From positions 1-30,579 of IMG/VR virus record IMGVR_UViG_3300037487_001176: a DNA stretch of 30,579 bases, one strand, 5' to 3'. Each line of letters begins with the position of its first letter. Within the stretch, counting starts at the first letter, position 1. This DNA comes from a virus. Shown in pieces: positions 3,632 to 22,875 of the stretch. The position numbers and the translations under genes were made by a program. The notes under the pieces are model-generated. The model was not told the DNA's origin, made no database searches, and saw nothing but the letters and a program-made list of their open reading frames with translations.

Positions 3632-3897
3632 TGCCGAAAAAGAGCGTATCGCTGGCCGTAGGCCGCGGCGAGAAGCTACCGACGGATAAGGGCGCGGGCC
3701 TGACTGCAAAGGGCCGCGCCAAATACAATCGTGAGACCGGCTCGAACTTGAAGCCGCCGGCGCCCAACCCCAAGACTAAAAAAGATGCTGGACGGAAGGC
3801 TAGTTTTTGCGCTAGGATGAGACCTATCGCAGAAAAAAGTGAGAAGGGTAGCCGTGCACGAGCATCAATGCGTAGATGGAAATGCGGGGGAAGCTGA
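3631..3897 (+). CDS. Conserved small basic phage protein (DUF6321-like)
   Basis: The product has 88 residues and is highly basic. It carries LTAKGRAKYNRETGSN (residues 24-39) in the middle, SFCARM near residues 58-63, and ends RARASMRRWKCGGS. This pattern matches the DUF6321-type proteins I know from phage and environmental sequences, in which a KGRAKYN segment, a CARM motif and a terminal RKWKC recur. No function is known to me. The start overlaps the previous stop by 1 base. A homing-endonuclease gene follows immediately, but the C-terminal RRWKC is intact, so the insertion lies between genes and does not break this one. Confidence 0.8.
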   Translation: MPKKSVSLAVGRGEKLPTDKGAGLTAKGRAKYNRETGSNLKPPAPNPKTKKDAGRKASFCARMRPIAEKSEKGSRARASMRRWKCGGS

Positions 3898-3898
3898 A

Positions 3899-4327
3899 AT
3901 GTGGGCCGACATCCGCGGGTACGAAGGCCGTTATCAAGTAAGTAACTACGGCCGCGTTAAATCGCTTGCGCGGTTTCGCCGCGGTAAAAACGGGTCTCAA
4001 GTTCCACTTCCCGAACTAATTATGGCTTTGACACCAAAAAAAGACACCGGACGGACTAAACCCTATGTAGAAGTAAGGTTTAGAAATGGAGGTTTGCGTA
4101 CCGAACGCTGCAAAGCTTTTTTGGTCCATCGTTTAGTAGCCGACGCGTTTATTAAACCTTTAACCGCTGGCGAACAGGTAGACCACATAAATGGCTTGCA
4201 TAGTGACAACCGGGCGGTCAATTTACGTATTATGCGGGCGGTCGAACATGCGCGGATTCATCCTCGTGTAGTGAACCCTAACTCAAGATGTCTTGTCACA
4301 GGGCGTTTTGTAAAGGATAGTTTGTAA
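3899..4327 (+). CDS. NUMOD4/HNH homing endonuclease
   Basis: This 142-residue protein starts at ATG 3899, one base after the previous stop. The N-terminal NUMOD4-like segment is MWADIRGYEGRYQVSNYGRV (residues 1-20), the DNA-contact module of many free-standing homing endonucleases. The HNH nuclease follows: LVHRLVADAF (about 75-84), then QVDHINGLHSDNRAVNL with D95/H96 and N108. The gene is visibly AT-richer than its neighbours (25 G+C in 4021-4080 against 45 in 5401-5460), a sign of separate origin. It lies between two conserved small genes and its stop overlaps the next start. The expected activity is double-strand cleavage of endonuclease-free relatives, spreading the gene by recombination. 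Confidence 0.9.
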   Translation: MWADIRGYEGRYQVSNYGRVKSLARFRRGKNGSQVPLPELIMALTPKKDTGRTKPYVEVRFRNGGLRTERCKAFLVHRLVADAFIKPLTAGEQVDHINGLHSDNRAVNLRIMRAVEHARIHPRVVNPNSRCLVTGRFVKDSL

Positions 4328-11280: not shown

Positions 11281-11974
11281 CCAGATTAACGGTGCGCTTC
11301 GGCTTTTAGGTGTGCTGGCCGAAGGCGAAACGCCTTCGTCGGAAACTTCCCAAGACGCGCTTACGGCGCTCAACCAGATGATCGACAGTTGGAACACCGA
11401 ACGGCTGGCGGTGTTTTCGACACAGGACCAGGTGGAAACTTGGCCGCCCGGCGCCATATCTAGGACGTTCGGCCCAACCGGCGACATCGTGGGCAATCGG
11501 CCTGTTTTGGTGGACGACGCCACCTACTTTCGTGACCCCGCCAGCGGTATTTCATACGGCCTCAAGCTGATCAATCAGCAGCAGTACAACGGCATCGCCG
11601 TCAAAACTGTCACCAGCACGTACCCGCAGGTGCTGTGGGTCAACATGACCTACCCCAACATCGAGTTGTATGTGTACCCGGTGCCGACGAAGGTGTTGGA
11701 GTTCCACATTGTCTCGGTTCAAGAACTCTCCCAACCGGCAAATTTGACGACCACGCTGGCCTTTCCGCCAGGCTACCTGCGGTGCTTCCGCTACAACTTG
11801 GCGTGCGAGATGGCGCCCGAGTTTGGCGTTGAGCCGTCGCCGCAGGTGCAGCGCATCGCTATGACATCCAAGCGCAACTTGAAGCGGATCAACAACCCCG
11901 ACGACATCATGGCGCTGCCGTACAGCATCGTCGGCACTCGCCAACGCTTTAACATCTTTGCCGGCAACTACTAA
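11264..11974 (+). CDS. Head-to-tail connector (P22 gp4-like tail accessory factor)
   Basis: The product has 236 residues. The N-terminal helices (DQINGALRLLGVLAEGETPS, then DALTALNQMIDSWNTERLAV) are the signature of gp4/head-completion proteins. These bind under the portal after packaging. The remainder is mixed beta/helical with FPPGYLRCFRYNLACEMAPE near residues 165-185, also typical. It is longer than P22 gp4 (166 residues). GAGGAAG precedes the start, and the stop overlaps the next start (TAATG). The gp4-gp10 order is that of P22. Confidence 0.85.
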   Translation: MTTAADQINGALRLLGVLAEGETPSSETSQDALTALNQMIDSWNTERLAVFSTQDQVETWPPGAISRTFGPTGDIVGNRPVLVDDATYFRDPASGISYGLKLINQQQYNGIAVKTVTSTYPQVLWVNMTYPNIELYVYPVPTKVLEFHIVSVQELSQPANLTTTLAFPPGYLRCFRYNLACEMAPEFGVEPSPQVQRIAMTSKRNLKRINNPDDIMALPYSIVGTRQRFNIFAGNY

Positions 11975-13521
11975 TGAAGACGCCGATCCTTGGCTCGACC
12001 TATGTGGCCCGCAGCGTCAATGCTGCGGACAGCCGCATGATCAACCTGTTCCCAGAACTTGTGCCAGAGGGCGGCAAAGAACCCGCGTTTCTTCAACGTG
12101 CGCCGGGCTTGCAGTTGCTCGCCACGGTCGGCAGCGGGCCTATCCGCGGGCTGTGGCAAATGGGGGCGTACGGTTACGTTGTATCCGGCGACACGCTCTA
12201 TAAACTCAACAGCAACTGGGCCGCCACTTCCATTGGCACGATTGCCAACACCGGCCCTGTGTCAATGTCGGACAACGGTACGCAACTTTTTATCGCCGCC
12301 AACGGCCCCGGCTACATCTACAACACCCTGACAAATGTCTTTCAGCAGATCACCGACATTGATTACCCCGGTGCTGTCGCGGTCGGCTATTTGGACGGCT
12401 ACTTTGTGTTCAACGAGCCAAACAGCCAAAAGTTTTGGATCACAAGTTTGCTGGAAGGTACGCAGGTCGATCCATTAGATTTTGCCAGCGCTGAAGGCTC
12501 TCCTGACGGCTTGGTATCTCTCATTGTTGACCATCGCGAAGTTTGGTTGTTTGGCACCACTTCCGTTGAAGTCTGGTACGACGCCGGCACCGCGGATTTT
12601 CCACTCCAACGCATCCAAGGCGCGTTCAACGAAATCGGCTGCGCGGCCGCGTATTCCGTCGCCAAAATGGACAACGGCCTGTTTTGGTTGGGCGCCGACG
12701 CCCGCGGCCGAGGCATTGTGTATCGGTCCAACGGGTATACCGGGCAGCGCATTTCTACCCACGCGGTCGAGTGGCAAATCCAGCAGTACGGCAATCTTTC
12801 TGACGCCATCGGCTACACATACCAGCAGGACGGCCATTCATTCTATGTGCTGATCTTTCCGTCCGCCAATACGACGTGGGTGTACGACGCGGCCACGCAA
12901 GCCTGGCACGAGCGTTCTGGCTGGGAGAACGGCGCGTTTACGCGCCACCGCAGCAACTGCCAGATGAATTTCAACGACGAGATTGTTGTCGGCGATTTTG
13001 AAAACGGCAACATCTACGCCTTTAACCTTGACGTATACGCAGATAACGGCTCGGAACAGAAATGGCTGCGGTCCTGGCGCGCGTTGCCGACAGGTAAAAA
13101 CACGCTTCTTCGCACCACGCACCACGCACTGCAACTCGACTGCGAAACCGGCGTTGGCCTTAGCGTTTCGCCGTCTGATGATGAAATATTCGACAGCGCG
13201 GTTGAGGTAGGTCTGCTGCTTACGGAAGGCGATGATTTCCTTGTCACCGAAAGCGAAGACTATATTTCCGTCACGGAAAGCCCCCTTGTTACCATGGTGC
13301 CGCGCGTCATGCTGCGCTGGTCAGACGATGGCGGCCACACATGGTCAAACGAGCATTGGAAGTCCATGGGCCAAATCGGCCGCTACGGCTTCCGCACCAT
13401 CTGGCGCCGCCTTGGCATGACCATGAAAATCCGCGACCGGGTGTATGAGGTGTCTGGCACGGACCCGGTGAAAATAGCCATTCTCGGCGCCGAATTGGCG
13501 ATTAGCCCGACCAATGCCTAG
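11974..13521 (+). CDS. Tail accessory factor (P22 gp10-like, packaged-DNA stabilisation)
   Basis: The product has 515 residues (P22 gp10: 472). The N-terminus STYVARSVNAADSRMINLFP (residues 8-27) and the repeated beta-strand pattern with GLWQMGAYGYVVSGDTLYKL fit the beta-propeller-like gp10 family. The family forms the hexameric tail hub below gp4 and carries spikes or fibres. Further family-like segments are EVWYDAGTADFPLQRI and GIVYRSNGYTGQRISTHAVE. It is coupled to gp4-like on the left and overlaps the next gene by 8 bases. Confidence 0.85.
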   Translation: MKTPILGSTYVARSVNAADSRMINLFPELVPEGGKEPAFLQRAPGLQLLATVGSGPIRGLWQMGAYGYVVSGDTLYKLNSNWAATSIGTIANTGPVSMSDNGTQLFIAANGPGYIYNTLTNVFQQITDIDYPGAVAVGYLDGYFVFNEPNSQKFWITSLLEGTQVDPLDFASAEGSPDGLVSLIVDHREVWLFGTTSVEVWYDAGTADFPLQRIQGAFNEIGCAAAYSVAKMDNGLFWLGADARGRGIVYRSNGYTGQRISTHAVEWQIQQYGNLSDAIGYTYQQDGHSFYVLIFPSANTTWVYDAATQAWHERSGWENGAFTRHRSNCQMNFNDEIVVGDFENGNIYAFNLDVYADNGSEQKWLRSWRALPTGKNTLLRTTHHALQLDCETGVGLSVSPSDDEIFDSAVEVGLLLTEGDDFLVTESEDYISVTESPLVTMVPRVMLRWSDDGGHTWSNEHWKSMGQIGRYGFRTIWRRLGMTMKIRDRVYEVSGTDPVKIAILGAELAISPTNA

Positions 13522-14774: not shown

Positions 14775-15413
14775 ATGCCAGTTAAGCTGAACTCATCCGG
14801 CGGCGGTTCCGTCACGCTGACAACGCCAAGCACGGCGGTCGATTATACCGCTACGTTCCCGGCCAATACGGGGAATGTGGTGACAGATGGCGCAACCCAG
14901 ACGCTGACCAATAAGACGCTCAGCAGCCCGTTGGTTATGGGCGCAAGCGTTATCACATCAGGTACGGCGCAGGTCAGCACCAGCGGCACCAACATTGACT
15001 TTACCGGCATCCCGTCATGGGTAAAACGGGTGACGGTGGTGTTCAACGGCGTCAGCACGAACGGGACAAGCGCGCTCCTTGTACAGCTTGGGGATTCTGG
15101 CGGCATTGAAACCACAGGATACGTTTCAACAAGCCTTCAGATGTCAACTGCGGCAGGAATTGTCGATAGTTCAACTGCTGGGTTTATTATCCGATCTGCG
15201 ACGGCAGCAAATTTGTTTTCTGGGTCTATGGTAATTATGAATATCACCGGAAACGACTGGGTTTCAAATCATGTGGTAAAACAATCAACGACCGCTATTG
15301 CTGGCGGCGGCGGCGATAAATCCCTTTCAGCTACCCTCGACCGCGTTCGCATTACCACCGTCGGCGGCACCGACACCTTTGATGCGGGCAGCATCAACAT
15401 CCTGTACGAGTGA
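14775..15413 (+). CDS. Tail fibre protein, paralogue A
   Basis: The product has 212 residues. The N-terminus includes VTDGATQTLTNKTLSSPLV (residues 36-54), a frequent fibre shaft repeat. Residues 62-99 form a block (SGTAQVSTSGTNIDFTGIPS, then WVKRVTVVFNGVSTNGTS) that is 35 of 38 identical to the gene at 16394-17014. The last 22 residues (VRITTVGGTDTFDAGSINI and LYE) match that gene with one difference. Between these blocks the two proteins are unrelated. The middle is therefore the likely receptor-contact part. Confidence 0.8.
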   Translation: MPVKLNSSGGGSVTLTTPSTAVDYTATFPANTGNVVTDGATQTLTNKTLSSPLVMGASVITSGTAQVSTSGTNIDFTGIPSWVKRVTVVFNGVSTNGTSALLVQLGDSGGIETTGYVSTSLQMSTAAGIVDSSTAGFIIRSATAANLFSGSMVIMNITGNDWVSNHVVKQSTTAIAGGGGDKSLSATLDRVRITTVGGTDTFDAGSINILYE

Positions 15414-15423
15414 GGACTAGGAC

Positions 15424-15957
15424 ATGCCGATCATCATTTCTGGCTCCACTGGCATTTCAGGTGTTGACGGCACCGTTGCGACGCCCGCCGTGCAGGGCGC
15501 GGACACCAACACGGGCATCTACTACCCGGCGGCGGATCAGGTCGCGCTGTCAACTAACGGCGCGCAGGCTATGCTTGCGACGACGGCGGGTGTGACCATT
15601 GCGGGTAATCTGTCGTTCGACTCCGGTTATGGTTCTGCTGCGGTGGCGTATGGTTGCCGCGCGTGGGTAAACTTTAACGGCACCGGAACGGTTGCCATTC
15701 GTGCAAGCGGTAATGTCACTAGCATTACGGATAATGGAACAGGGGAATATACGCTTAATTTTACTACGGCGCTGCCCGATGCAAATTATTCTGTCGTAGG
15801 AAGTTGCGGCACCGGCGCGGCAGGAAACGATGATTTTAATCTATCCACTAACTTTAATGCGGCTCCAACAACGACAACAGCGCGCGTTGGTTCTCAGCGG
15901 GCGAATACAGGCGTTGCAACGGATGCTGCGTACATTTCTGTCGCTATTTTCCGCTGA
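15424..15957 (+). CDS. Tail fibre protein with common C-terminal domain
   Basis: The product has 177 residues. The N-terminus MPIIISGSTGISGVDGTVA and TNTGIYYPAADQVALSTNGA are standard phage fibre shaft motifs. The C-terminal domain (YGCRAWVNFNGTGTVAIRAS, then LPDANYSVVGSCGTG) is a widespread fibre tip module. GAGGACTAGGAC precedes the start. It is another separate fibre chain in the cluster, alongside paralogues A and B. Confidence 0.8.
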   Translation: MPIIISGSTGISGVDGTVATPAVQGADTNTGIYYPAADQVALSTNGAQAMLATTAGVTIAGNLSFDSGYGSAAVAYGCRAWVNFNGTGTVAIRASGNVTSITDNGTGEYTLNFTTALPDANYSVVGSCGTGAAGNDDFNLSTNFNAAPTTTTARVGSQRANTGVATDAAYISVAIFR

Positions 15958-15969
15958 AAGGGTAATCTA

Positions 15970-16161
15970 ATGAATCAACGTATTATATACCCAACAGACG
16001 AAGGCGGCGTTGCCGTTATCATTCCTGCACCTGAGTGCGGCCTGACGATTGAAGAAATCGCGGCCAAGAATGTGCCTGCGGGTAAGCCGTTTAAGATTGT
16101 GGATGTGGCGGATATTCCGTCAGATCGTACCTTCCGAGCCGCTTGGGAGTACAGCGAATGA
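15970..16161 (+). CDS. Small conserved protein of the fibre cluster
   Basis: The 63-residue product begins MNQRIIYPTDEGGVAVIIPA and ends FKIVDVADIPSDRTFRAAWE plus YSE. This small acidic protein commonly accompanies phage fibre genes. The IPSDRTFRAAWE ending is its signature, and its role (perhaps fibre assembly) is unproven. AAGGG lies upstream, and its stop overlaps the next start (ATGA), indicating a coupled pair. Confidence 0.75.
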   Translation: MNQRIIYPTDEGGVAVIIPAPECGLTIEEIAAKNVPAGKPFKIVDVADIPSDRTFRAAWEYSE

Positions 16162-16391
16162 TCACCGTCAACATCGACAAGGCCAAGGCCATCGCCCACG
16201 ACCGTCGCCGTGCGGCCCGTGCGGAGGAGTTTAAGCCGCATGATGAGATCATCATGAAGCAAATCCCTGGTGCTGACGCTGCGGCGGCAGAGGCTGCCCG
16301 CGCGACCATCCGCGCCAAGTATTCTGATATGCAGAGCCAGATTGAAGCCGCTGCCACGCCCGACGAAATCAAGGCCGCTTTAGGAGCCTAA
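16158..16391 (+). CDS. Small helical partner protein of the fibre cluster
   Basis: The 77-residue product begins MITVNIDKAKAIAHDRRRAA. It continues with a helix containing EEFKPHDEIIMKQIPG and ends in ATPDEIKAALGA. It is fully helical and charged, and is typical of a small protein found paired with the preceding one next to fibres. I chose ATG 16158 (GGGAG upstream) over an in-frame ATG 15 bases earlier. A fibre-assembly chaperone role is conjecture. Confidence 0.75.
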   Translation: MITVNIDKAKAIAHDRRRAARAEEFKPHDEIIMKQIPGADAAAAEAARATIRAKYSDMQSQIEAAATPDEIKAALGA

Positions 16392-16393
16392 AC

Positions 16394-17014
16394 ATGTCCA
16401 CCTTGCAAGCCACGAACCTCAAGCACGGCAGCAGCGCCAGCAACAACATCGTGCTGGACGCGAGCGGCAACACGACCATCAGCGGCGCAGCGACGTTCAG
16501 TGGTGCTGTCACAACGGGCGTTGGCGCGCTTTATCCTTTGGTATCCGGCACAGCGCAGGCCAGCACCAGCGGCACCAGCATCGACTTCACCGGCATCCCG
16601 TCATGGGTGAAGCGGGTGACGGTGATGTTTAATGGGGTATCAACAAATGGCACTTCCAACGTACGAGTGCGGATAGGTCCATCAGGTGGTGTAGAAACTT
16701 CTGGTTACCTAGGCGCATCCATTACTTGTTTATCAACTAGCGTTAATACACAAGCTTTTACCGCAGGGTTTGATTTTTATGACGGAGGCGCGGCGGCAGC
16801 GGTGCGAAATGGCGTAATGATTCTCGCGCTGCTTGACTCCAGCACAAACACTTGGACCGCTTCGGCCAACCTTGGGCAGTCAGATGCAGCCCGTTTTATT
16901 GGTTTGGGCGGATCAAAGCCTCTAGCCGGTGCGCTGTCTATAGTTCGCATCACAACTGTCAACGGCACCGACACCTTTGATGCTGGTAGCATCAACATCT
17001 TGTATGAGGGCTAA
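16394..17014 (+). CDS. Tail fibre protein, paralogue B
   Basis: The product has 206 residues. The N-terminus (STLQATNLKHGSSASNNIVL) is a shaft motif different from paralogue A. Residues 51-88 (SGTAQASTSGTSIDFTGIPS, then WVKRVTVMFNGVSTNGTS) and the terminal VRITTVNGTDTFDAGSINI block are nearly identical to paralogue A. The stretch between them (about residues 89-183) differs. It is preceded by TTAGGAGC. This arrangement suggests module duplication followed by replacement of the centre, giving the phage alternative fibre chains. Confidence 0.8.
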   Translation: MSTLQATNLKHGSSASNNIVLDASGNTTISGAATFSGAVTTGVGALYPLVSGTAQASTSGTSIDFTGIPSWVKRVTVMFNGVSTNGTSNVRVRIGPSGGVETSGYLGASITCLSTSVNTQAFTAGFDFYDGGAAAAVRNGVMILALLDSSTNTWTASANLGQSDAARFIGLGGSKPLAGALSIVRITTVNGTDTFDAGSINILYEG

Positions 17015-17017
17015 GAT

Positions 17018-17356
17018 ATGGCCGTAACTGTTACCGTCCTGATCCCAGCCAAGACTGCGGAAAACACGCAGACGACGCAGTACACCTCCAACGGTGTCAC
17101 GACGATCATCGACAAGTTCACCGCAACCAATTACACCGGCACGGCCGCGACGATCAGCATCAACTTGGTGACGGGCGCCGGCGCTGCCGGCAACGACAAC
17201 CTGATTGTCCAGAACAAGACGCTGCAAGCGGGCGAGACCTACACCTTCCCTGAGATCGTGGGCCAGGTGCTGTCACCCAGCGGGTTCATCTCCACAATCG
17301 CCGGCACGGCGTCGGCTATCAACATGCGCGCCAGCGGGCGCCAGGTGACGCAGTGA
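17018..17356 (+). CDS. Beta-rich phage protein after the fibre genes
   Basis: The 112-residue product begins MAVTVTVLIPAKTAENTQTT and is strand-rich throughout (TATNYTGTAATISINLVTGA, then LQAGETYTFPEIVGQVLSPS). The pattern resembles a small beta-sandwich found in phage virions near fibres. No catalytic residues stand out. Its stop overlaps the GTG start of the hydroxylase gene (GTGA), so the enzyme behind it is translated with virion proteins. Confidence 0.65.
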   Translation: MAVTVTVLIPAKTAENTQTTQYTSNGVTTIIDKFTATNYTGTAATISINLVTGAGAAGNDNLIVQNKTLQAGETYTFPEIVGQVLSPSGFISTIAGTASAINMRASGRQVTQ

Positions 17357-17895
17357 GGCATTTTCTCTGCATAGCTGATCAAGTTGATGTTACACCAGTC
17401 CTTCGGGAGCTAGCCGTCCAACCTGAATTGTGGGACCAAAATACGCTTCGCACACAGCACCCGAACACAGCCCACAGCGCTGTCAGCGACATTTGGTTGT
17501 GGTTTAACGAAGTGTCTGACGATGTGTCGGCGGTGGCCAACGACATTCAAACGCGGCCTTACCCGGCGTGGGGCGCTCTGCCGTCCTTGCGGCGGCTGGT
17601 GTTGGACCTGATCCGCCGCGTGGACGGCGTGCAGCTAGGCCGCGTAATCGTCACCAAACTGCCGTCGGGTGCCATCATAACACCCCACGTTGACCGCGGC
17701 GCCCCGGCGGAATTTTACACCCGGTATCAAATTGCGTTACAGTCGCGCCCCGGCTCGTTGTTCCACTGCGAAGACGAAACGGTCAACTTTCGCCCCGGCG
17801 AAGTTTGGTGGGTCAACAACCGCGTAACGCACTCCGTTGTTAACAACAGTGACGACGACCGGATCGTGTGCATCGTGGATATTCGGAGCGCATAG
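17353..17895 (+). CDS. 2OG-Fe(II) dioxygenase, aspartyl/asparaginyl beta-hydroxylase type
   Basis: The 180-residue protein has an HxD...H iron-binding facial triad: IITPHVDRGAP gives H112 and D114, and WVNNRVTHSVVNN gives H160. R170 in DDDRIVCIVDIR is in the position that binds the 2-oxoglutarate carboxylate. GSLFHCEDETVNFRPGEVWW between them matches the Asp/Asn hydroxylase family (PF05118 type). Enzymes of this family hydroxylate Asp/Asn (or other) side chains in proteins. The substrate here is unknown. It starts at GTG 17353 overlapping the previous stop and is followed within 2 bases by an acetyltransferase gene. Confidence 0.85.
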   Translation: MRHFLCIADQVDVTPVLRELAVQPELWDQNTLRTQHPNTAHSAVSDIWLWFNEVSDDVSAVANDIQTRPYPAWGALPSLRRLVLDLIRRVDGVQLGRVIVTKLPSGAIITPHVDRGAPAEFYTRYQIALQSRPGSLFHCEDETVNFRPGEVWWVNNRVTHSVVNNSDDDRIVCIVDIRSA

Positions 17896-17896
17896 C

Positions 17897-18352
17897 GTGA
17901 TCACGGCGCAGGTCGAACCTTGGAGCGAGTTTGTTAAAGACGCGGTAGAGCTATTTCCCGCGCACTGGGAAGAATTGGCGCTGAACAAAGACAAGGTGCC
18001 GCTGTCCGTTCAACACGATGTATACCTAGCGTACGAGGCCGCAGGGCAGACGCTTGTTGTGACCCTTCGGCAGAAAGGCCGGTTGGTCGGATACTTTGTT
18101 GGGTTCGTGTCGCCGGCGCTGCACTACAGCACCTGCTTGACCTTGCAAATGGACATTTTCTGGACCCATCCCGACATCCGCGGACGCATGGAAGGTGTAA
18201 AACTCTTTAGAGCAGTGGAAGCTGAGGCCAAGCGCCGCGGCGTCCAGCGCATCTTTTATGGGTCCAAATTGCATAAAGACGCTTCTCGGCTGTTTGAGTA
18301 TTTGAAAATGGAGCCGGTTGAGGTGTATTACACCAAGTGGATTGGAGACTGA
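17897..18352 (+). CDS. GNAT-type N-acetyltransferase
   Basis: This 151-residue protein starts at GTG 17897 with GGAG 8 bases upstream. The GNAT pattern is visible: strands TLVVTLRQKGRLVGYFVGFV (residues 52-71), LQMDIFWTHPDIRG (83-96), the acetyl-CoA loop region RGRMEGVKLFRAVEAEAKRR (95-114), then VQRIFYGSKLHKDASRLFEY. The P-loop is a degenerate RGRMEG in place of canonical Q/RxxGxG/A. I recognise similar acetyltransferases between the fibre and ejection genes of other podophages. The substrate is unknown. The hydroxylase directly upstream makes joint modification of one target plausible. Confidence 0.75.
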   Translation: MITAQVEPWSEFVKDAVELFPAHWEELALNKDKVPLSVQHDVYLAYEAAGQTLVVTLRQKGRLVGYFVGFVSPALHYSTCLTLQMDIFWTHPDIRGRMEGVKLFRAVEAEAKRRGVQRIFYGSKLHKDASRLFEYLKMEPVEVYYTKWIGD

Positions 18353-18356
18353 CGCT

Positions 18357-19148
18357 ATGGTCGCAGCAGCAGCTATTGTAGGTGGCGCCGCCTTAATCGG
18401 CACAGTCGGCAGCATGTACGCGGCGGACAAAGCGGCAGGAGCGCAGAAGAGAGCCGCGCGCGACGCGGCTGCTGCTACCTCCGAGGCCGCGCAACAGTCC
18501 ATCGACGCCCAGGAGCGGATGTTCGGCAAACAGGTCGAACTGCAAGAGCCGTTTCGCCAAGCCGGCCTGTCCGCGCAAAACAGGCTGATGGATTATTTGG
18601 CTTTAAGCGAAAATAAAACCGCGCCCGGCTATGGTAAATACGCCCGCGACTTTAGCATGGCCGACTATACTGCCGACCCCGGCTACGGGTTTCGTGTCAG
18701 CGAGGGCATGAAGGCGCTTGAACGGTCAGCGGCCGCGCGCGGCGGCCTGCTGTCGGGCGCCACACTGAAAGGCATTACGCGGTTTGGGCAGAACACGGCG
18801 TCTGAAGAGTACCAGAACGCGTTCAACCGCTACCAGGTGAACCGCGCCAACCAGCTTAACCCGCTGCAAAGCCTTATGGGCGCGGGCCAGACCAGCGCAA
18901 ACGCTCTGACTTCGGCGGCCGGCCAAACCGGCGCCGGGATGGGCAGCACTTACATGGGTATGGGTGCCGGCCTGTCAAACGCTGCGCTGGCCGGGGGCGC
19001 TGGCCGCGCGTCCGGCTACATAAACATGGCCAACGCATTAAACCAGGGCCTTAGCACCGGCGCCAATCTGTACATGCAGGGGCAGTATCTCGGCGGGGTA
19101 AACGAGCTTAACGCAGCTAGAACTGCGTATTACAACCGCCAGGTGTAA
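18357..19148 (+). CDS. DNA ejection / internal virion protein 1
   Basis: The product has 263 residues. An N-terminal hydrophobic, Gly/Ala-rich segment (VAAAAIVGGAALIGTVGSMY) could insert in membrane. An Ala/Gln/Arg helical stretch follows, then the family-like block YGFRVSEGMKALERSAAARG (about 102-121), GGLLSGATLKGITRFGQNTA and EYQNAFNRYQVNRANQLNPL. I recognise this as the phage DNA-transfer protein type located after fibres and before the lysozyme-containing ejection protein. The C-terminus is Gly/Ala-rich. GGAG precedes ATG 18357. Confidence 0.75.
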   Translation: MVAAAAIVGGAALIGTVGSMYAADKAAGAQKRAARDAAAATSEAAQQSIDAQERMFGKQVELQEPFRQAGLSAQNRLMDYLALSENKTAPGYGKYARDFSMADYTADPGYGFRVSEGMKALERSAAARGGLLSGATLKGITRFGQNTASEEYQNAFNRYQVNRANQLNPLQSLMGAGQTSANALTSAAGQTGAGMGSTYMGMGAGLSNAALAGGAGRASGYINMANALNQGLSTGANLYMQGQYLGGVNELNAARTAYYNRQV

Positions 19149-19159
19149 GGAGATAGCGC

Positions 19160-21208
19160 ATGTCCGGTTCCTTCCCTCCTTTGCCTGAACTCCGGCCTTT
19201 TCAGGCGCCTAATCTTGTAGCAATGTCCAGCGCTATGCAGGAGCAATCGCTAAACGCAATGCGCGAACGGGCGTTGATGGGTAACGAGCAGGAGCTTACA
19301 AACCTGCGGCGCGTGGTGGCCGACCCAAATTTTGATATTAACGCGCCCGGCGCAACAAACCGTATCTTATCGGCGGCCCCGCGCAGCGGCGCGCAAACGG
19401 TTCAAGCGCTGATGGCCGCGCAAAATCAGCGCCGGCTGGCGGAAGGCGCCGGCCTTGAAAACGCCGTTAAACTTACCCAATCATTTCGGGATTTGCTTCC
19501 TACTGCCACTGCGGAAAACTACCCCGCAATTCGCGCGGCGGCGCTCGCGGCGGTGCCCGGTTGGGCGCCTTCGTGGCCTGAAAATTACGACGCAGACGCG
19601 GTTCGGGCGCTTATGCAAAAGGCGGACGACAAACTTAAAGAATACGGCGTTACTATCACGGCGACGCAAGGCGGCACTGGTGCGTTTGCTTCGCCGACAG
19701 TGCTGCCCCGCGGTGCCGCGCCTTTACAAGGCCCGACGTTTTACCCCGCCGAAAGCATCCCCGCCGCGCCGGCGCCGACCGCGCCCGGCGCCCCCGCTCC
19801 ACGCGCCGAGGCGCCGTCTTTGGGTGACCCAGGCCGCGACATGGCGGCGGCCATGTTGCGCCGCAGCGAAGGTTTCCGCCCCGAACCGTATTTTGACCGC
19901 ACGGCCTTCCGCACGGGCTACGGCAGCGACCAAATTACGACGGCGGATGGCCGCGTCGTGCCGGTGACGCAAGGCACCCGCGTGACGCAGGAAGACGCCG
20001 AGCGCGACCTAGCCCGGCGCGTCCCCGAGTTTGAGCGGCGCGCAGCGGCAGCGGTGGGCGAGGAACGGTTTGCGGCGCTGCCGCCGAACGTCCGCGCTGC
20101 GTTGATCTCCGTGGCGTATAACTACGGCACGCTGCCAGGCCGCATCCGTAACGCGGTGCAGTCCGGCGACGTGGATGCCATCGCCGCCGCCGTCGAAGGG
20201 TTGGCTGGCGATAACCAAGGCATCAACGCGCGCCGCCGCAGCGAGGAAGCCGCGGTCATCCGCGGCGCTAACGCTATGGCGCCAAACGCCGCGCCTGCCA
20301 ACGCCATGCTGGCGCCACCGGACGCGGCGGTGGTGCCACGACCATTAAGCCCAGTTGAGTTTCCGGGGGCTCCAAGGCCAGCCTCATTAAGCGAAGCTGA
20401 TTTGCTTAAGCGCATACGGGACGTGCAACAGAAAGAAGCCGAAGCCCTTATGCTTGCAGATGTTCAACGTCAAACGGCGGCAGCGCGCATAGCGGAAGAA
20501 GCCGATAAGGCGCGGGGCGTTGCCCAAGCCCAGGCCCAGGTGCGGGGCAACTTGCCGCCGCCTCCCGCTGGCTATCGGTACAACCAAGATTTTACTGCTT
20601 TTGAACCTGTTCCTGGCTCGCCTCAAGCCCAAGCCGTAACCGAACGGCGCGGCGCGCAAGTCGCGGCGGCCAACGTTGTGACACGCGACATTGACCGCAT
20701 TTTGGAAAGATTGGACACGGCGGTTCTTCCCGTAACTGGCATGGGCGCGCCTACAATGGCCGCGCTGGTGGGCGGTTCGCCGGCCGCTGACGTTGCAGAA
20801 CTGCGGAAAACTATTGAAGGCAACATCTCGTTTAACAAACTAAATGAGTTGCGCCAGCAAAGCCCAACCGGCGGTGCGTTGGGCAACGTGACCGATAAAG
20901 ACCTAGAGTTGTTAAAAACAACACTGGGCAGTTTAAACCAAAACCAATCGCCGCGGCAGTTCCGCGAAAACCTGTTAAACCTCCGCAACGCGTTTATGGA
21001 GGTTATCCACGGGCCTAACTTTAGAGATGTGGCGCCCCCGGCGCGCGAACCCCCGGCGCCGGAACGGTTGCCCGGCCGCCGCGGCGCACCGCCGACTGGT
21101 AACCGGCCTACGCTTGAGCAGTTTCTTGAACGCGCGCGCCCGGCAAACCCTAACGCGTCAACCGAAGACCTTACCTCCTATTACAACCGCACTTATGGGG
21201 GCCGCTGA
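19160..21208 (+). CDS. Ejection protein with embedded T4-type lysozyme (GH24)
   Basis: The product has 682 residues. The N-terminal helical region (1-190) is followed by a Pro/Ala linker. Residues 225-370 form a GH24 muramidase: AAMLRRSEGFRPEPYFDRTA then FRTGYGS carries E237, D246 and T252, the same spacing as the E11/D20/T26 triad of T4 lysozyme. LPPNVRAALISVAYNYGTL fits the family's second half. The C-terminal half is a long helical region (IDRILERLDTAVLPVTGMGA, then LRKTIEGNISFNKLNELRQQ). It probably travels in the capsid and opens peptidoglycan locally during DNA ejection. AAGGAGATA is a strong ribosome-binding site. Confidence 0.88.
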   Translation: MSGSFPPLPELRPFQAPNLVAMSSAMQEQSLNAMRERALMGNEQELTNLRRVVADPNFDINAPGATNRILSAAPRSGAQTVQALMAAQNQRRLAEGAGLENAVKLTQSFRDLLPTATAENYPAIRAAALAAVPGWAPSWPENYDADAVRALMQKADDKLKEYGVTITATQGGTGAFASPTVLPRGAAPLQGPTFYPAESIPAAPAPTAPGAPAPRAEAPSLGDPGRDMAAAMLRRSEGFRPEPYFDRTAFRTGYGSDQITTADGRVVPVTQGTRVTQEDAERDLARRVPEFERRAAAAVGEERFAALPPNVRAALISVAYNYGTLPGRIRNAVQSGDVDAIAAAVEGLAGDNQGINARRRSEEAAVIRGANAMAPNAAPANAMLAPPDAAVVPRPLSPVEFPGAPRPASLSEADLLKRIRDVQQKEAEALMLADVQRQTAAARIAEEADKARGVAQAQAQVRGNLPPPPAGYRYNQDFTAFEPVPGSPQAQAVTERRGAQVAAANVVTRDIDRILERLDTAVLPVTGMGAPTMAALVGGSPAADVAELRKTIEGNISFNKLNELRQQSPTGGALGNVTDKDLELLKTTLGSLNQNQSPRQFRENLLNLRNAFMEVIHGPNFRDVAPPAREPPAPERLPGRRGAPPTGNRPTLEQFLERARPANPNASTEDLTSYYNRTYGGR

Positions 21209-22875
21209 TGGTTGATATTGTCGATCCATTTAAAGCCCCCGCAATAGTAGACCCTTTTGCGGCGCCGGACACGTCACTCGCGCAAAACGTCGGCGTCGTG
21301 TCTCGCGCCGCGGCTCCACCTGCTGCGGCGACCGCCGCAGGCGCGTTGGCAGGCTCTCGCTTTGGCGCGCCCGGCGCCCGCGTGGGCGCGGCGCTGGGGC
21401 CGTTATTGCTGGGTGCTGCCGACATTGGCGCGACGGGGTACAACATCGCCGCGCCGTATGTGGGCCTGCCGACGGCGGGTTTACCGTCTGAAGTTATTCA
21501 AAACGTAATGGAGCGCGCTGGGTTTGGCCGGCAACCGCAAACTTATGGCCAGCAATTGTTATCTGACGTAACCGCAGGGGGCACATCGGCGGGCGCGCAA
21601 GCGGCGTCGTTTAACGTGCTTGCGCGGCGCGTAGGCCCTCAAATGGCGCAGTACCTAATGCCGCAAGGCGCCGTGCAATCGCAACGGCCAGCTAGCCTGC
21701 TTACCACGCTGTCCGCGCAGCCCGCAGCGCAGGTGGGCGCCGGCGCAGGGGGCGCCGCAGGACCGACGTTGGCGCGGGCGGTAACCGAAGATGAAAACCC
21801 GTACCAAGACATCGTGGCCAGTCTGGCCGGCGCTGTTTTAGGCGGCACCACCGCGAGTAAAGTAGCCGCCGGGGCGCGGGGCGCAAGGGACTTGGCGCGG
21901 CGGCCGTCTACACCGTCTACTGAGGATTTGCGCGTGCGGGCTGACCGCTTGTACGCAGACGCCGACGCAGCCGGCGCGCGCTACGATCCCGCTTCGGCGT
22001 CGGGGTTTGCGGGCGGTTTGCGGAGTTTTATTGCTGGCGAAGGCTATACGTTAGGCCAAAACACACCCACCGTAGTAAACAAAACAATATCCATCTTGGA
22101 TAATTCAAGCCAACCAATATCGTTTACCGAATTACACACGTTGCGGAAAGACTTGGCCGCTACACGACGTAGCCTTAGCGGTTCGGCCGCGCCAGGTTCG
22201 GATGATGACGCCCGTCTTATCGGGGCGGTTATGCGTCGGCTGGATGATTTTACCTTAAATCCTCCCGGCGGCGCGCTTGTTGGTGGCGACATTGCCGCTA
22301 CCCGCCGCGCTGTGGCAGACGCCCGCGCTACGTGGTCGCGCATGAGCAAGAGCGAAGACATCGAAGACGCCGTGTACCGCGCTTCTGTGTCTAAGCCCGG
22401 CAGCGAGGGCCGGATGGACGAAGCACTTCGCGCCGAATTTGCAAACTTGGCCAAGCGCATCCGCGACGGGAAAGCGTCTAACTTTAACGCGGACGAAATC
22501 GAAAACATCGAACGGATTGCTCGCGGTCAAAACAGAGGCGCGTTAGTAAAGACCCTGAGCGCGTTAAGCCCTGGTTTGTCGGCGCGGGGGGCCGTTGGTG
22601 TTGTCGCCCCCGCGGCCGCCGGCGCGGCCTCGATGTACAGCGGGGCGCATCCTGAAGTGTTAGCGGCGGCGGGGCTTTTGGCCAGTACCGCATACGGGGC
22701 GCGCGCCGCGCGTAACATGATGGCGCAGCAGGGCGCGGCTAATCTGGCCGCTGGCGTGCGTCGGGGGGACGTGCAGGCGCCAATCGCCGCGCGGCCTGTG
22801 CCGATGATTTCGCCTACGATCCAGCAAATGATCTACCAGCCTGAGTACGAACCCGCCAACTATTTTGCCCGCTGA
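21208..22875 (+). CDS. Large Ala/Gly-rich ejection protein
   Basis: The product has 555 residues. An IVDPFAAP-like repeat at the N-terminus (VDIVDPFKAPAIVDPFAAPD) is followed by long Ala/Gly-rich, moderately hydrophobic stretches (ATAAGALAGSRFGAPGARVG; SLAGAVLGGTTASKVAAGAR). A helical charged middle follows, then a second hydrophobic stretch near residues 460-505. This composition and the position after the lysozyme-bearing gene match the third ejection protein of P22-like phages, which lines or crosses the host membrane during ejection. Assignment is by composition and context, without a diagnostic motif. Confidence 0.7.
   Translation: MVDIVDPFKAPAIVDPFAAPDTSLAQNVGVVSRAAAPPAAATAAGALAGSRFGAPGARVGAALGPLLLGAADIGATGYNIAAPYVGLPTAGLPSEVIQNVMERAGFGRQPQTYGQQLLSDVTAGGTSAGAQAASFNVLARRVGPQMAQYLMPQGAVQSQRPASLLTTLSAQPAAQVGAGAGGAAGPTLARAVTEDENPYQDIVASLAGAVLGGTTASKVAAGARGARDLARRPSTPSTEDLRVRADRLYADADAAGARYDPASASGFAGGLRSFIAGEGYTLGQNTPTVVNKTISILDNSSQPISFTELHTLRKDLAATRRSLSGSAAPGSDDDARLIGAVMRRLDDFTLNPPGGALVGGDIAATRRAVADARATWSRMSKSEDIEDAVYRASVSKPGSEGRMDEALRAEFANLAKRIRDGKASNFNADEIENIERIARGQNRGALVKTLSALSPGLSARGAVGVVAPAAAGAASMYSGAHPEVLAAAGLLASTAYGARAARNMMAQQGAANLAAGVRRGDVQAPIAARPVPMISPTIQQMIYQPEYEPANYFAR

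What the first reader, a model, noticed from the sequence alone, without database searches (positions are those of the whole stretch)
17353..18352. Hydroxylase-acetyltransferase pair embedded in the virion operon
An Asp/Asn-hydroxylase-type 2OG-Fe(II) enzyme with intact H112/D114/H160/R170 is translationally coupled to a virion-type protein and followed 2 bases later by a GNAT enzyme. Both use GTG starts. Late expression among fibre and ejection genes suggests they modify a virion protein, or a host protein late in infection, possibly acting in sequence on one substrate. I know of no defined role for such a pair.
Basis: partly seen in the sequence, partly recalled or inferred. Interest (0 to 1): 0.6.

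Follow-up and report, generated by a model that had tools for sequence, protein, structure and literature searches.

The report
Ejection-protein modifying enzyme pair in podophages
A virus of bacteria carries two protein-modifying enzymes directly in front of the gene for a protein that it injects into its host, and across hundreds of related viruses the first exposed amino acid of that injected protein changes with the kind of enzyme carried, which suggests that the enzymes chemically tailor the injected protein.

Summary
In detail: a PF05118 2OG-Fe(II) hydroxylase (17353-17895, GTG) overlaps the preceding 112-aa gene by 4 nt, and a GNAT (17897-18352, GTG) follows after 1 nt. H112/D114/H160/R170 are intact, invariant in 60 distinct homologues, and both genes are under purifying selection. 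Neighbours are not random: 69 of 87 distinct hydroxylases with enough flank have the GNAT downstream. But the pair is not obligatory. Close relatives lack the hydroxylase, GNATs occur alone, the order can be reversed, and a cupin can replace the GNAT. What stays constant is the next gene, the small DNA-ejection protein (P22 gp7/T7 gp14-like). Residue 2 of that protein tracks the enzymes: GNAT gives V/G/A (90/90), hydroxylase+cupin gives P (16/16), cupin or cupin-SET alone gives S/T (69/69). This also holds for ejection proteins with homologous bodies (1679/1679 cross-class pairs), and position 2 is by far the most informative position. T7 gp13, an assembly factor in the same slot, is predicted to have a GNAT fold. 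Best reading: dedicated modification/assembly enzymes for the ejection protein, probably acting at its N-terminus. "Asp/Asn hydroxylase" is not secure: the closest solved structures are L-proline hydroxylases. Substrate and chemistry remain inferred.

The parts
17353..17895 (+). PF05118-type 2OG-Fe(II) hydroxylase, 180 aa, GTG start; facial triad H112/D114/H160 and R170
   Evidence: Pfam 2.2e-13; invariant triad in 60 homologues; AF2 model pLDDT 93.3; nearest solved L-proline cis-4-hydroxylase 4P7W and proline 3-hydroxylase 1E5R/1E5S, then AspH
17897..18352 (+). GNAT-family protein, 151 aa, GTG start; P-loop R95-G-R-M-E-G100 (partly degenerate R/Q-x-x-G-x-G/A)
   Evidence: Pfam PF00583 above cut-off; PHROG 1249 acetyltransferase 1.2e-10; PDB profile hits are nearly all GNATs; motif listing
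18357..19148 (+). small DNA-ejection protein (P22 gp7-like), 263 aa, N-terminus MVAAAAIVGGAALIG; proposed substrate
   Evidence: PHROG 598 DNA ejection 7e-33; constant downstream neighbour
18357..18425 (+). first 23 codons of the ejection gene: hydrophobic N-terminal segment whose residue 2 (here V) varies with the enzyme class upstream
17018..17356 (+). 112-aa virion-type protein of unknown family, overlaps the hydroxylase start by 4 nt
   Evidence: no significant family hit; conserved upstream neighbour in the window clade
19160..21208 (+). second ejection/internal protein with a lysozyme domain
   Evidence: PF00959 7.9e-9; PHROG 24864 5e-26
21208..22875 (+). third large protein of the ejection region, 555 aa
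   Evidence: PHROG 21712 1.5e-15; position in operon
11974..13521 (+). P22 gp10-like head-closure Hc3 protein, marks the tail/ejection module
   Evidence: PHROG 578 9.6e-132
14775..17014 (+). tail-fibre-like gene cluster (14775-15413, 15424-15957, 15970-16161, 16143-16391, 16394-17014)
   Evidence: PHROG 11355/3484 tail fibre for 15424-15957; PHROG 29482 for 14775-15413 and 16394-17014

Best explanation
The hydroxylase and the GNAT are late-expressed, dedicated modification/assembly enzymes for the small ejection protein encoded by the next gene. They occupy the slot that T7 gp13 holds in front of ejection protein gp14. Most likely, after Met removal exposes Val (Gly or Ala in relatives), the GNAT binds and N-alpha-acetylates the ejection protein's N-terminus. 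The hydroxylase is an accessory 2OG-dependent oxygenase that hydroxylates a residue of the same protein; in relatives that carry hydroxylase plus cupin, the exposed Pro is the best candidate. The modification would tune how the hydrophobic N-terminal segment is protected, assembled into the procapsid core, or inserted into the membrane on ejection. Shown: gene order, conservation, catalytic residues, dependence of residue 2 on enzyme class, predicted GNAT fold of T7 gp13. Inferred: that the ejection protein is the substrate, the site, the chemistry and the benefit.
For: The ejection-type gene is next in every main context: fibre-hyd-GNAT-eject, TerL-hyd-GNAT-small protein-portal, hyd-cupin-eject, hyd-eject (L003), cupin-hyd-eject (L157), GNAT-eject (Zobellviridae), cupin-eject, cupin-SET-eject. 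Residue 2: GNAT V63/G17/A10; hyd+cupin P16; cupin S67/T2. With enzymes clustered at 50% identity: 12 GNAT clusters all V/G/A, 8 hyd+cupin all P, 6 cupin all S/T; chance of perfect sorting 3e-11 under free shuffling. All 1679 cross-class pairs with homologous bodies obey the rule, e.g. L152 (Pro2) and L221 (Val2) with 82% identical bodies. The gene after the ejection gene shows no such rule. Information about enzyme class peaks at position 2 (1.49 bits; 0.39-0.84 at positions 3-9). All residues seen (A, C, G, P, S, T, V) are MetAP-cleavable (own knowledge). T7 gp13: AF2 pLDDT 92.9, listed PDB matches all GNATs; its homologue is not listed among phiPsa17 virion proteins (PMC4517105). Proline hydroxylases are the nearest solved relatives of the hydroxylase, fitting the hyd+cupin/Pro2 link. 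A SET lysine-methyltransferase-like domain fused to the cupin in the same slot also points to protein modification.
Against: No modification has been measured. The hydroxylase co-occurs with Pro2 only when the cupin replaces the GNAT (or, in L003, when neither is present); in the window residue 2 is Val, so its target there is unknown. Hydroxylase presence or absence in the closest relatives changes little in the ejection protein (3 fixed differences). N-terminus and enzyme are physically adjacent, so linkage by descent can mimic a functional link. The GNAT P-loop is partly degenerate, and T7 gp13 has none visible, so the fold may act as a chaperone rather than an enzyme. GNATs near L202-L213 precede a different, non-hydrophobic protein. 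phiKMV has an ejection protein with Ala2 and no enzyme in front.
Confidence: 0.5

Rival explanations
1. Non-catalytic assembly factors: the GNAT fold (as in T7 gp13) and the cupin act as chaperones or scaffolds that hold the hydrophobic N-terminus of the ejection protein until it enters the procapsid. The residue-2 rule reflects binding specificity, not chemistry; the hydroxylase is an accessory.
For: T7 gp13 keeps a GNAT fold without a visible acetyl-CoA P-loop and is called a probable scaffold (PF11090); the P-loop is partly degenerate in the window family; most cupin-only proteins in the alignment lack the last His ligand.
Against: The hydroxylase keeps every catalytic residue; GNAT residues H23, E26, H76, Y77, D86, R95 and K124 are invariant; a SET methyltransferase-like domain occurs in the same slot.
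Confidence: 0.25
2. The enzymes modify other virion proteins (the tail-fibre-like or 112-aa protein upstream) and merely lie in the same late operon.
For: The 112-aa gene overlaps the hydroxylase start and is its conserved upstream neighbour in the window clade.
Against: Upstream neighbours change (head-closure protein, TerL, tail tube B, fibres) whereas the downstream ejection-type gene persists; the 112-aa gene is kept where the hydroxylase is absent.
Confidence: 0.1
3. Auxiliary metabolic or host-takeover genes acting on host proteins or small molecules late in infection, as the phage literature usually assumes.
For: Phage GNATs can hit host targets: Rac of a phiKMV-like phage acts on RNA polymerase (cited in PMC10504331). 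The DC33 hydroxylase was published as an AMG (PMC12195039). The hydroxylase resembles free L-proline hydroxylases.
Against: Constant position in front of the ejection gene and covariation with its N-terminus are not expected for AMGs.
Confidence: 0.1
4. Hitch-hiking: recombination breakpoints inside the ejection gene keep its first 25 or so codons linked to the upstream enzyme by descent, with no functional relation.
For: N-terminal segments travel with the upstream enzyme against exchanged bodies.
Against: Information peaks sharply at residue 2 rather than being even over positions 2-9; the same classes recur with unrelated ejection families and divergent enzymes.
Confidence: 0.15

Closest known systems
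T7 gp13 (PF11090, probable scaffold, upstream of ejection protein gp14)
   Same: Same operon position before the small ejection protein; predicted GNAT fold
   Different: No significant sequence similarity to the window GNAT; no acetyl-CoA P-loop seen in the gp13 alignment; no hydroxylase partner
Pseudomonas phage PfAn1 genes XRX11816-XRX11818
   Same: Same order hydroxylase-GNAT-ejection protein; GNAT 54%, hydroxylase 38-40% identical; ejection protein starts MVAAAV
   Different: Annotated hypothetical protein / putative acetyltransferase; function untested
L-proline cis-4-hydroxylase (4P7W) and proline 3-hydroxylase (1E5R/1E5S)
   Same: Closest solved structures by sequence and fold; HxD...H...R aligned
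   Different: Those act on free L-proline and are about 290 aa, with about 100 more residues after the shared region
AspH (aspartyl/asparaginyl beta-hydroxylase, PF05118)
   Same: Same Pfam family and fold
   Different: More distant than proline hydroxylases; human AspH is, to my knowledge, an exception that lacks the Asp of the triad; no EGF-domain substrate known here
P22 gp14-gp7
   Same: Small morphogenesis gene directly before ejection gene 7, in a P22-like operon
   Different: DUF2824, no detectable match to the GNAT profile; gp7 loses 20 N-terminal residues to host OpdA

Membership tests
PF05118 Asp_Arg_Hydrox | Profile score above curated cut-off | tested here: met
   50.8 bits against 22.6
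PF05118 Asp_Arg_Hydrox | HxD...H iron triad and 2OG-binding Arg | tested here: met
   H112, D114, H160, R170 invariant
PF05118 Asp_Arg_Hydrox | Double-stranded beta-helix oxygenase fold | tested here: met
   AF2 pLDDT 93.3; 433 PDB matches at E<=0.001, the 50 listed all hydroxylases/2OG oxygenases
Asp/Asn beta-hydroxylase (enzyme activity) | Hydroxylates Asp or Asn in a protein | not testable with these tools
   Nearest solved enzymes are proline hydroxylases
GNAT acetyltransferases (PF00583) | Profile score above curated cut-off | tested here: met
   24.6 bits against 20.7; PDB profile hits to GNATs
GNAT acetyltransferases (PF00583) | Acetyl-CoA P-loop R/Q-x-x-G-x-G/A | tested here: inconclusive
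   R95 and G100 kept, central Gly replaced in most members
GNAT acetyltransferases (PF00583) | Acetyl transfer activity | not testable with these tools
   No assay
T7 gp13 family (PF11090) | Sequence or profile homology | tested here: not met
   hhalign probability 0.2%; no PF11090 match
T7 gp13 family (PF11090) | Gene directly upstream of the small ejection protein | tested here: met
T7 gp13 family (PF11090) | GNAT fold | tested here: met
   gp13 model m1236b7724323 against the PDB; the window GNAT was assigned by Pfam and not modelled
T7 gp13 family (PF11090) | Absent from mature virions | not testable with these tools
   Only gp13 of phiPsa17 is documented as not detected (PMC4517105)
P22 gp7-like DNA ejection proteins (PHROG 598) | Profile match of the downstream gene | tested here: met
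   7e-33

The most novel reading that the evidence does not exclude
Short-tailed phages carry an exchangeable slot of protein-modifying enzymes (GNAT, proline-hydroxylase-like oxygenase, cupin, cupin-SET methyltransferase) that chemically cap the exposed N-terminal residue of the injected ejection protein. The identity of that residue (V/G/A, P, S/T) co-evolves with the enzyme. T7 gp13 would be a decayed GNAT of this class, which would explain an old assembly gene of unknown mechanism.
Probability: 0.3. Interest if true: 0.88.

Novelty: new variant of a known kind. Interest (0 to 1): 0.7.

Why it matters
Ejection proteins build the trans-envelope channel of short-tailed phages, and the review read here does not mention acetylation, hydroxylation or post-translational modification of them (PMC8954989). 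A phage-encoded, exchangeable set of modifying enzymes tied to their N-terminus would be a new layer of virion maturation. It would give a concrete hypothesis for T7 gp13, and it would reclassify genes that papers now list as auxiliary metabolic genes. It can be tested with standard virion proteomics.

Tried and rejected
A recent joint transfer of hydroxylase+GNAT as a cassette: identity profiles against close relatives show no breakpoints flanking the pair. Direct sequence homology of the window GNAT to T7 gp13: not significant; fold used instead. Hydroxylase target from fixed differences between hydroxylase-plus and -minus relatives: only positions 4, 8 and 114 (by window numbering), one lineage, not interpretable. 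F116 as a bridge between DUF2833 and acetyltransferases: the stretch fetched ended before the tail module; only the YA3 annotation in PMC7326022 supports it. The A1 alignment was too diverse for a collection scan. Genome contigs gave one extra locus, L303, same order hyd-GNAT-ejection. Start calls in L217, L330, L310 and L380 were unresolved and left out of the residue-2 counts.

Full report
OBSERVATION. The window is a 30.6-kb linear virus record with a P22-like late operon: TerL, portal, major head protein, head-closure Hc3, tail-fibre-like genes, then the ejection region. The hydroxylase ORF is 17353-17895 with a GTG start that overlaps the stop of a 112-aa gene by four bases. The GNAT ORF is 17897-18352 with a GTG start one base after the hydroxylase stop. 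The next ATG, 18357, starts a 263-aa protein matching PHROG 598 "DNA ejection" at 7e-33. Pfam assigns PF05118 (2.2e-13) and PF00583 (3.4e-5), both above the curated cut-offs. H112, D114, H160 and R170 are invariant in 60 distinct homologues. Pairwise dN/dS is 0.03-0.16 for the hydroxylase and 0.04-0.12 for the GNAT.

NEIGHBOURHOOD. A scan of IMG/VR gave 79 relatives of the hydroxylase. In the window clade the order 112-aa gene - hydroxylase - GNAT - ejection protein is kept at 75-90% identity, and hydroxylase-GNAT-ejection recurs in the isolated Pseudomonas phage PfAn1. With the further scans there were 116 distinct hydroxylase sequences; of 87 with more than 2 kb downstream, 69 have the GNAT next, 12 a small cupin and 6 neither (the sampling was seeded from hydroxylase+GNAT phages, so these fractions are not population estimates). 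In Limnohabitans DC33-type phages the pair sits between TerL and portal, again followed by a small protein with a hydrophobic N-terminus. Whether that 107-129-aa protein is a true ejection protein is not shown: it matches mainly PHROGs of unknown function.

THE PAIR IS NOT OBLIGATORY. Very close relatives of the window (L085-L087, L093-L102; GNAT 86-88% identical) have the 112-aa gene followed after nine bases by the GNAT, with no hydroxylase, in the ones inspected. GNATs without hydroxylase also occur in Zobellviridae, between tail tube protein B or a similar gene and a small hydrophobic-start protein. Divergent hydroxylases carry a cupin of about 107-118 aa instead of the GNAT; L003 has hydroxylase then ejection protein; L157 has cupin-hydroxylase-ejection; L330 has GNAT then hydroxylase. 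In cupin-only phages the cupin, often annotated as a tail-fibre protein, lies directly before the ejection gene, and in a large group it is fused to a SET lysine-methyltransferase-like domain (PF00856 6.4e-6 in L304, above cut-off). The constant element is therefore the downstream ejection-type gene, and the enzymes form an exchangeable slot in front of it. Exceptions: L253, L258 and L262 (hydroxylase before TerL), L155 (hydroxylase before terminase-like genes) and L202-L213 (GNAT before a different, non-hydrophobic protein).

THE RESIDUE-2 RULE. Residue 2 of the protein after the enzymes, which would be the exposed N-terminus after Met removal, depends on the enzyme class. GNAT with or without hydroxylase: V 63, G 17, A 10. 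Hydroxylase+cupin: P 16 of 16. Cupin or cupin-SET alone: S 67, T 2 (four loci with unresolved starts and ten whose next gene is not ejection-like were left out). Relatedness is the main worry, and was handled four ways. (i) Clustering the enzymes at 50% identity leaves 12, 8 and 6 clusters, all obeying the rule; perfect sorting by chance has probability 3e-11 under free shuffling, which still ignores deeper descent. (ii) All 1679 pairs of ejection proteins whose bodies (residue 36 on) are homologous but whose enzyme class differs obey it, e.g. L152 (MPWGF, hyd+cupin) against L221 (MVAAA, hyd+GNAT), 82% identical bodies, or L149 (MPWGI) against L346 (MSGIA), 61%. These pairs are not independent; they show that several switches occurred. 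(iii) The gene after the ejection gene shows mixed A/P/S in every class. (iv) Mutual information with enzyme class is 1.49 bits at position 2 and 0.39-0.84 bits at positions 3-9. All residues seen, including Cys in T7 gp14, belong to the set that methionine aminopeptidase tolerates at position 2 (own knowledge). Outside the slot, P22 gp7 has Leu2 (its first 20 residues are cleaved by host OpdA) and phiKMV gp35 has Ala2 with no enzyme in front.

T7 GP13. T7 has gene 13 exactly between tail gene 12 and ejection gene 14. Gp13 is PF11090, "probable scaffold"; a review calls it necessary with undetermined location (PMC8811829), and its homologue is not in the list of phiPsa17 virion proteins (PMC4517105). 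AlphaFold2 gives a confident model (pLDDT 92.9) with GNAT topology, and all listed PDB matches are GNATs. Sequence profiles do not link it to the window GNAT, so it is an analogue in position and fold, not a proven homologue. In phage YA3 a DUF2833 (the former PF11090 name, own knowledge; one search shows T7 gp13 annotated so) protein annotated as putative acetyltransferase directly precedes internal virion protein B (PMC7326022).

CHEMISTRY. The hydroxylase model (pLDDT 93.3) and profile are closest to L-proline cis-4-hydroxylase and proline 3-hydroxylase, ahead of AspH. The label "Asp/Asn hydroxylase" should not be taken as the substrate. In hydroxylase+cupin phages the ejection protein starts with Pro, which makes N-terminal proline a natural candidate there; in the window it starts with Val and the hydroxylase's target is open. 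For the GNAT, N-alpha-acetylation of an exposed V/G/A is consistent with the absence of Pro in this class (an N-terminal Pro is a poor acetylation substrate; own knowledge), but the absence of S/T, which are also acetylatable, is not explained by this. The GNAT P-loop keeps R95 and G100 but usually lacks the central glycine, so catalysis is likely, not certain.

PRIOR WORK. Papers found list these genes separately as auxiliary metabolic genes: the DC33 hydroxylase (PMC12195039), aspartyl/asparaginyl hydroxylase as a core gene of pelagimyophages (PMC7029224), GNATs and 2OG oxygenases in roseophages (PMC11288001, PMC6918029). The ejection-protein review contains none of the terms acetyl, hydroxyl or post-translational (PMC8954989). 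No paper in the library was found that ties the slot to ejection proteins; subscription journals are not covered.

VERDICT. The reading "sequential pair" should be replaced by [quoted passage not shown]. The functional link is a strong correlation, not a demonstration.

Noticed in passing
L304:1720-2481, L307:1690-2565 and about 80 IMG/VR loci (L334-L413): Cupin fused to a SET-domain methyltransferase-like domain directly before the ejection gene in many podophages; ejection protein starts MS.
   Followed up: partly
L269:5308-5724 (T7 gene 13): T7 gp13, an assembly protein of unknown mechanism, is predicted with high confidence to have a GNAT fold without a visible acetyl-CoA loop.
   Followed up: yes
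L414:912-1367 (P22 gene 14): P22 gp14 (DUF2824, 151 aa) lies in the same position before gp7 and by eye resembles a GNAT; no profile support, fold not tested.
   Followed up: partly
L085-L087, L093-L102: Close relatives of the window lack the hydroxylase cleanly (112-aa gene, 9 nt, GNAT); their ejection proteins start MVASAAIIGG instead of MVAAAAIVGG or MVGAAAIVGG.
   Followed up: partly
L330:2501-3456: Reversed order: GNAT followed by a PF05118 hydroxylase, then a protein with a hydrophobic segment.
   Followed up: no
window 14775-15413 and 16394-17014: Two paralogous tail-fibre-like genes (both PHROG 29482) separated by an unrelated tail-fibre gene; this stretch is highly variable between close relatives.
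   Followed up: no
window 3839-4327: HNH endonuclease gene between terminase large subunit and portal, possibly a homing-type insertion.
   Followed up: no
PQ492659.1 (Limnohabitans phage DC33): GenBank taxonomy places this tailed dsDNA phage in Inoviridae, which looks like a misclassification.
   Followed up: no
L078/L077/L075 cupins against L266/L268/L306 cupins: Cupins paired with the hydroxylase keep a terminal His ligand that the cupin-only proteins replace by Arg or another residue, so metal binding may differ between the two classes.
   Followed up: no
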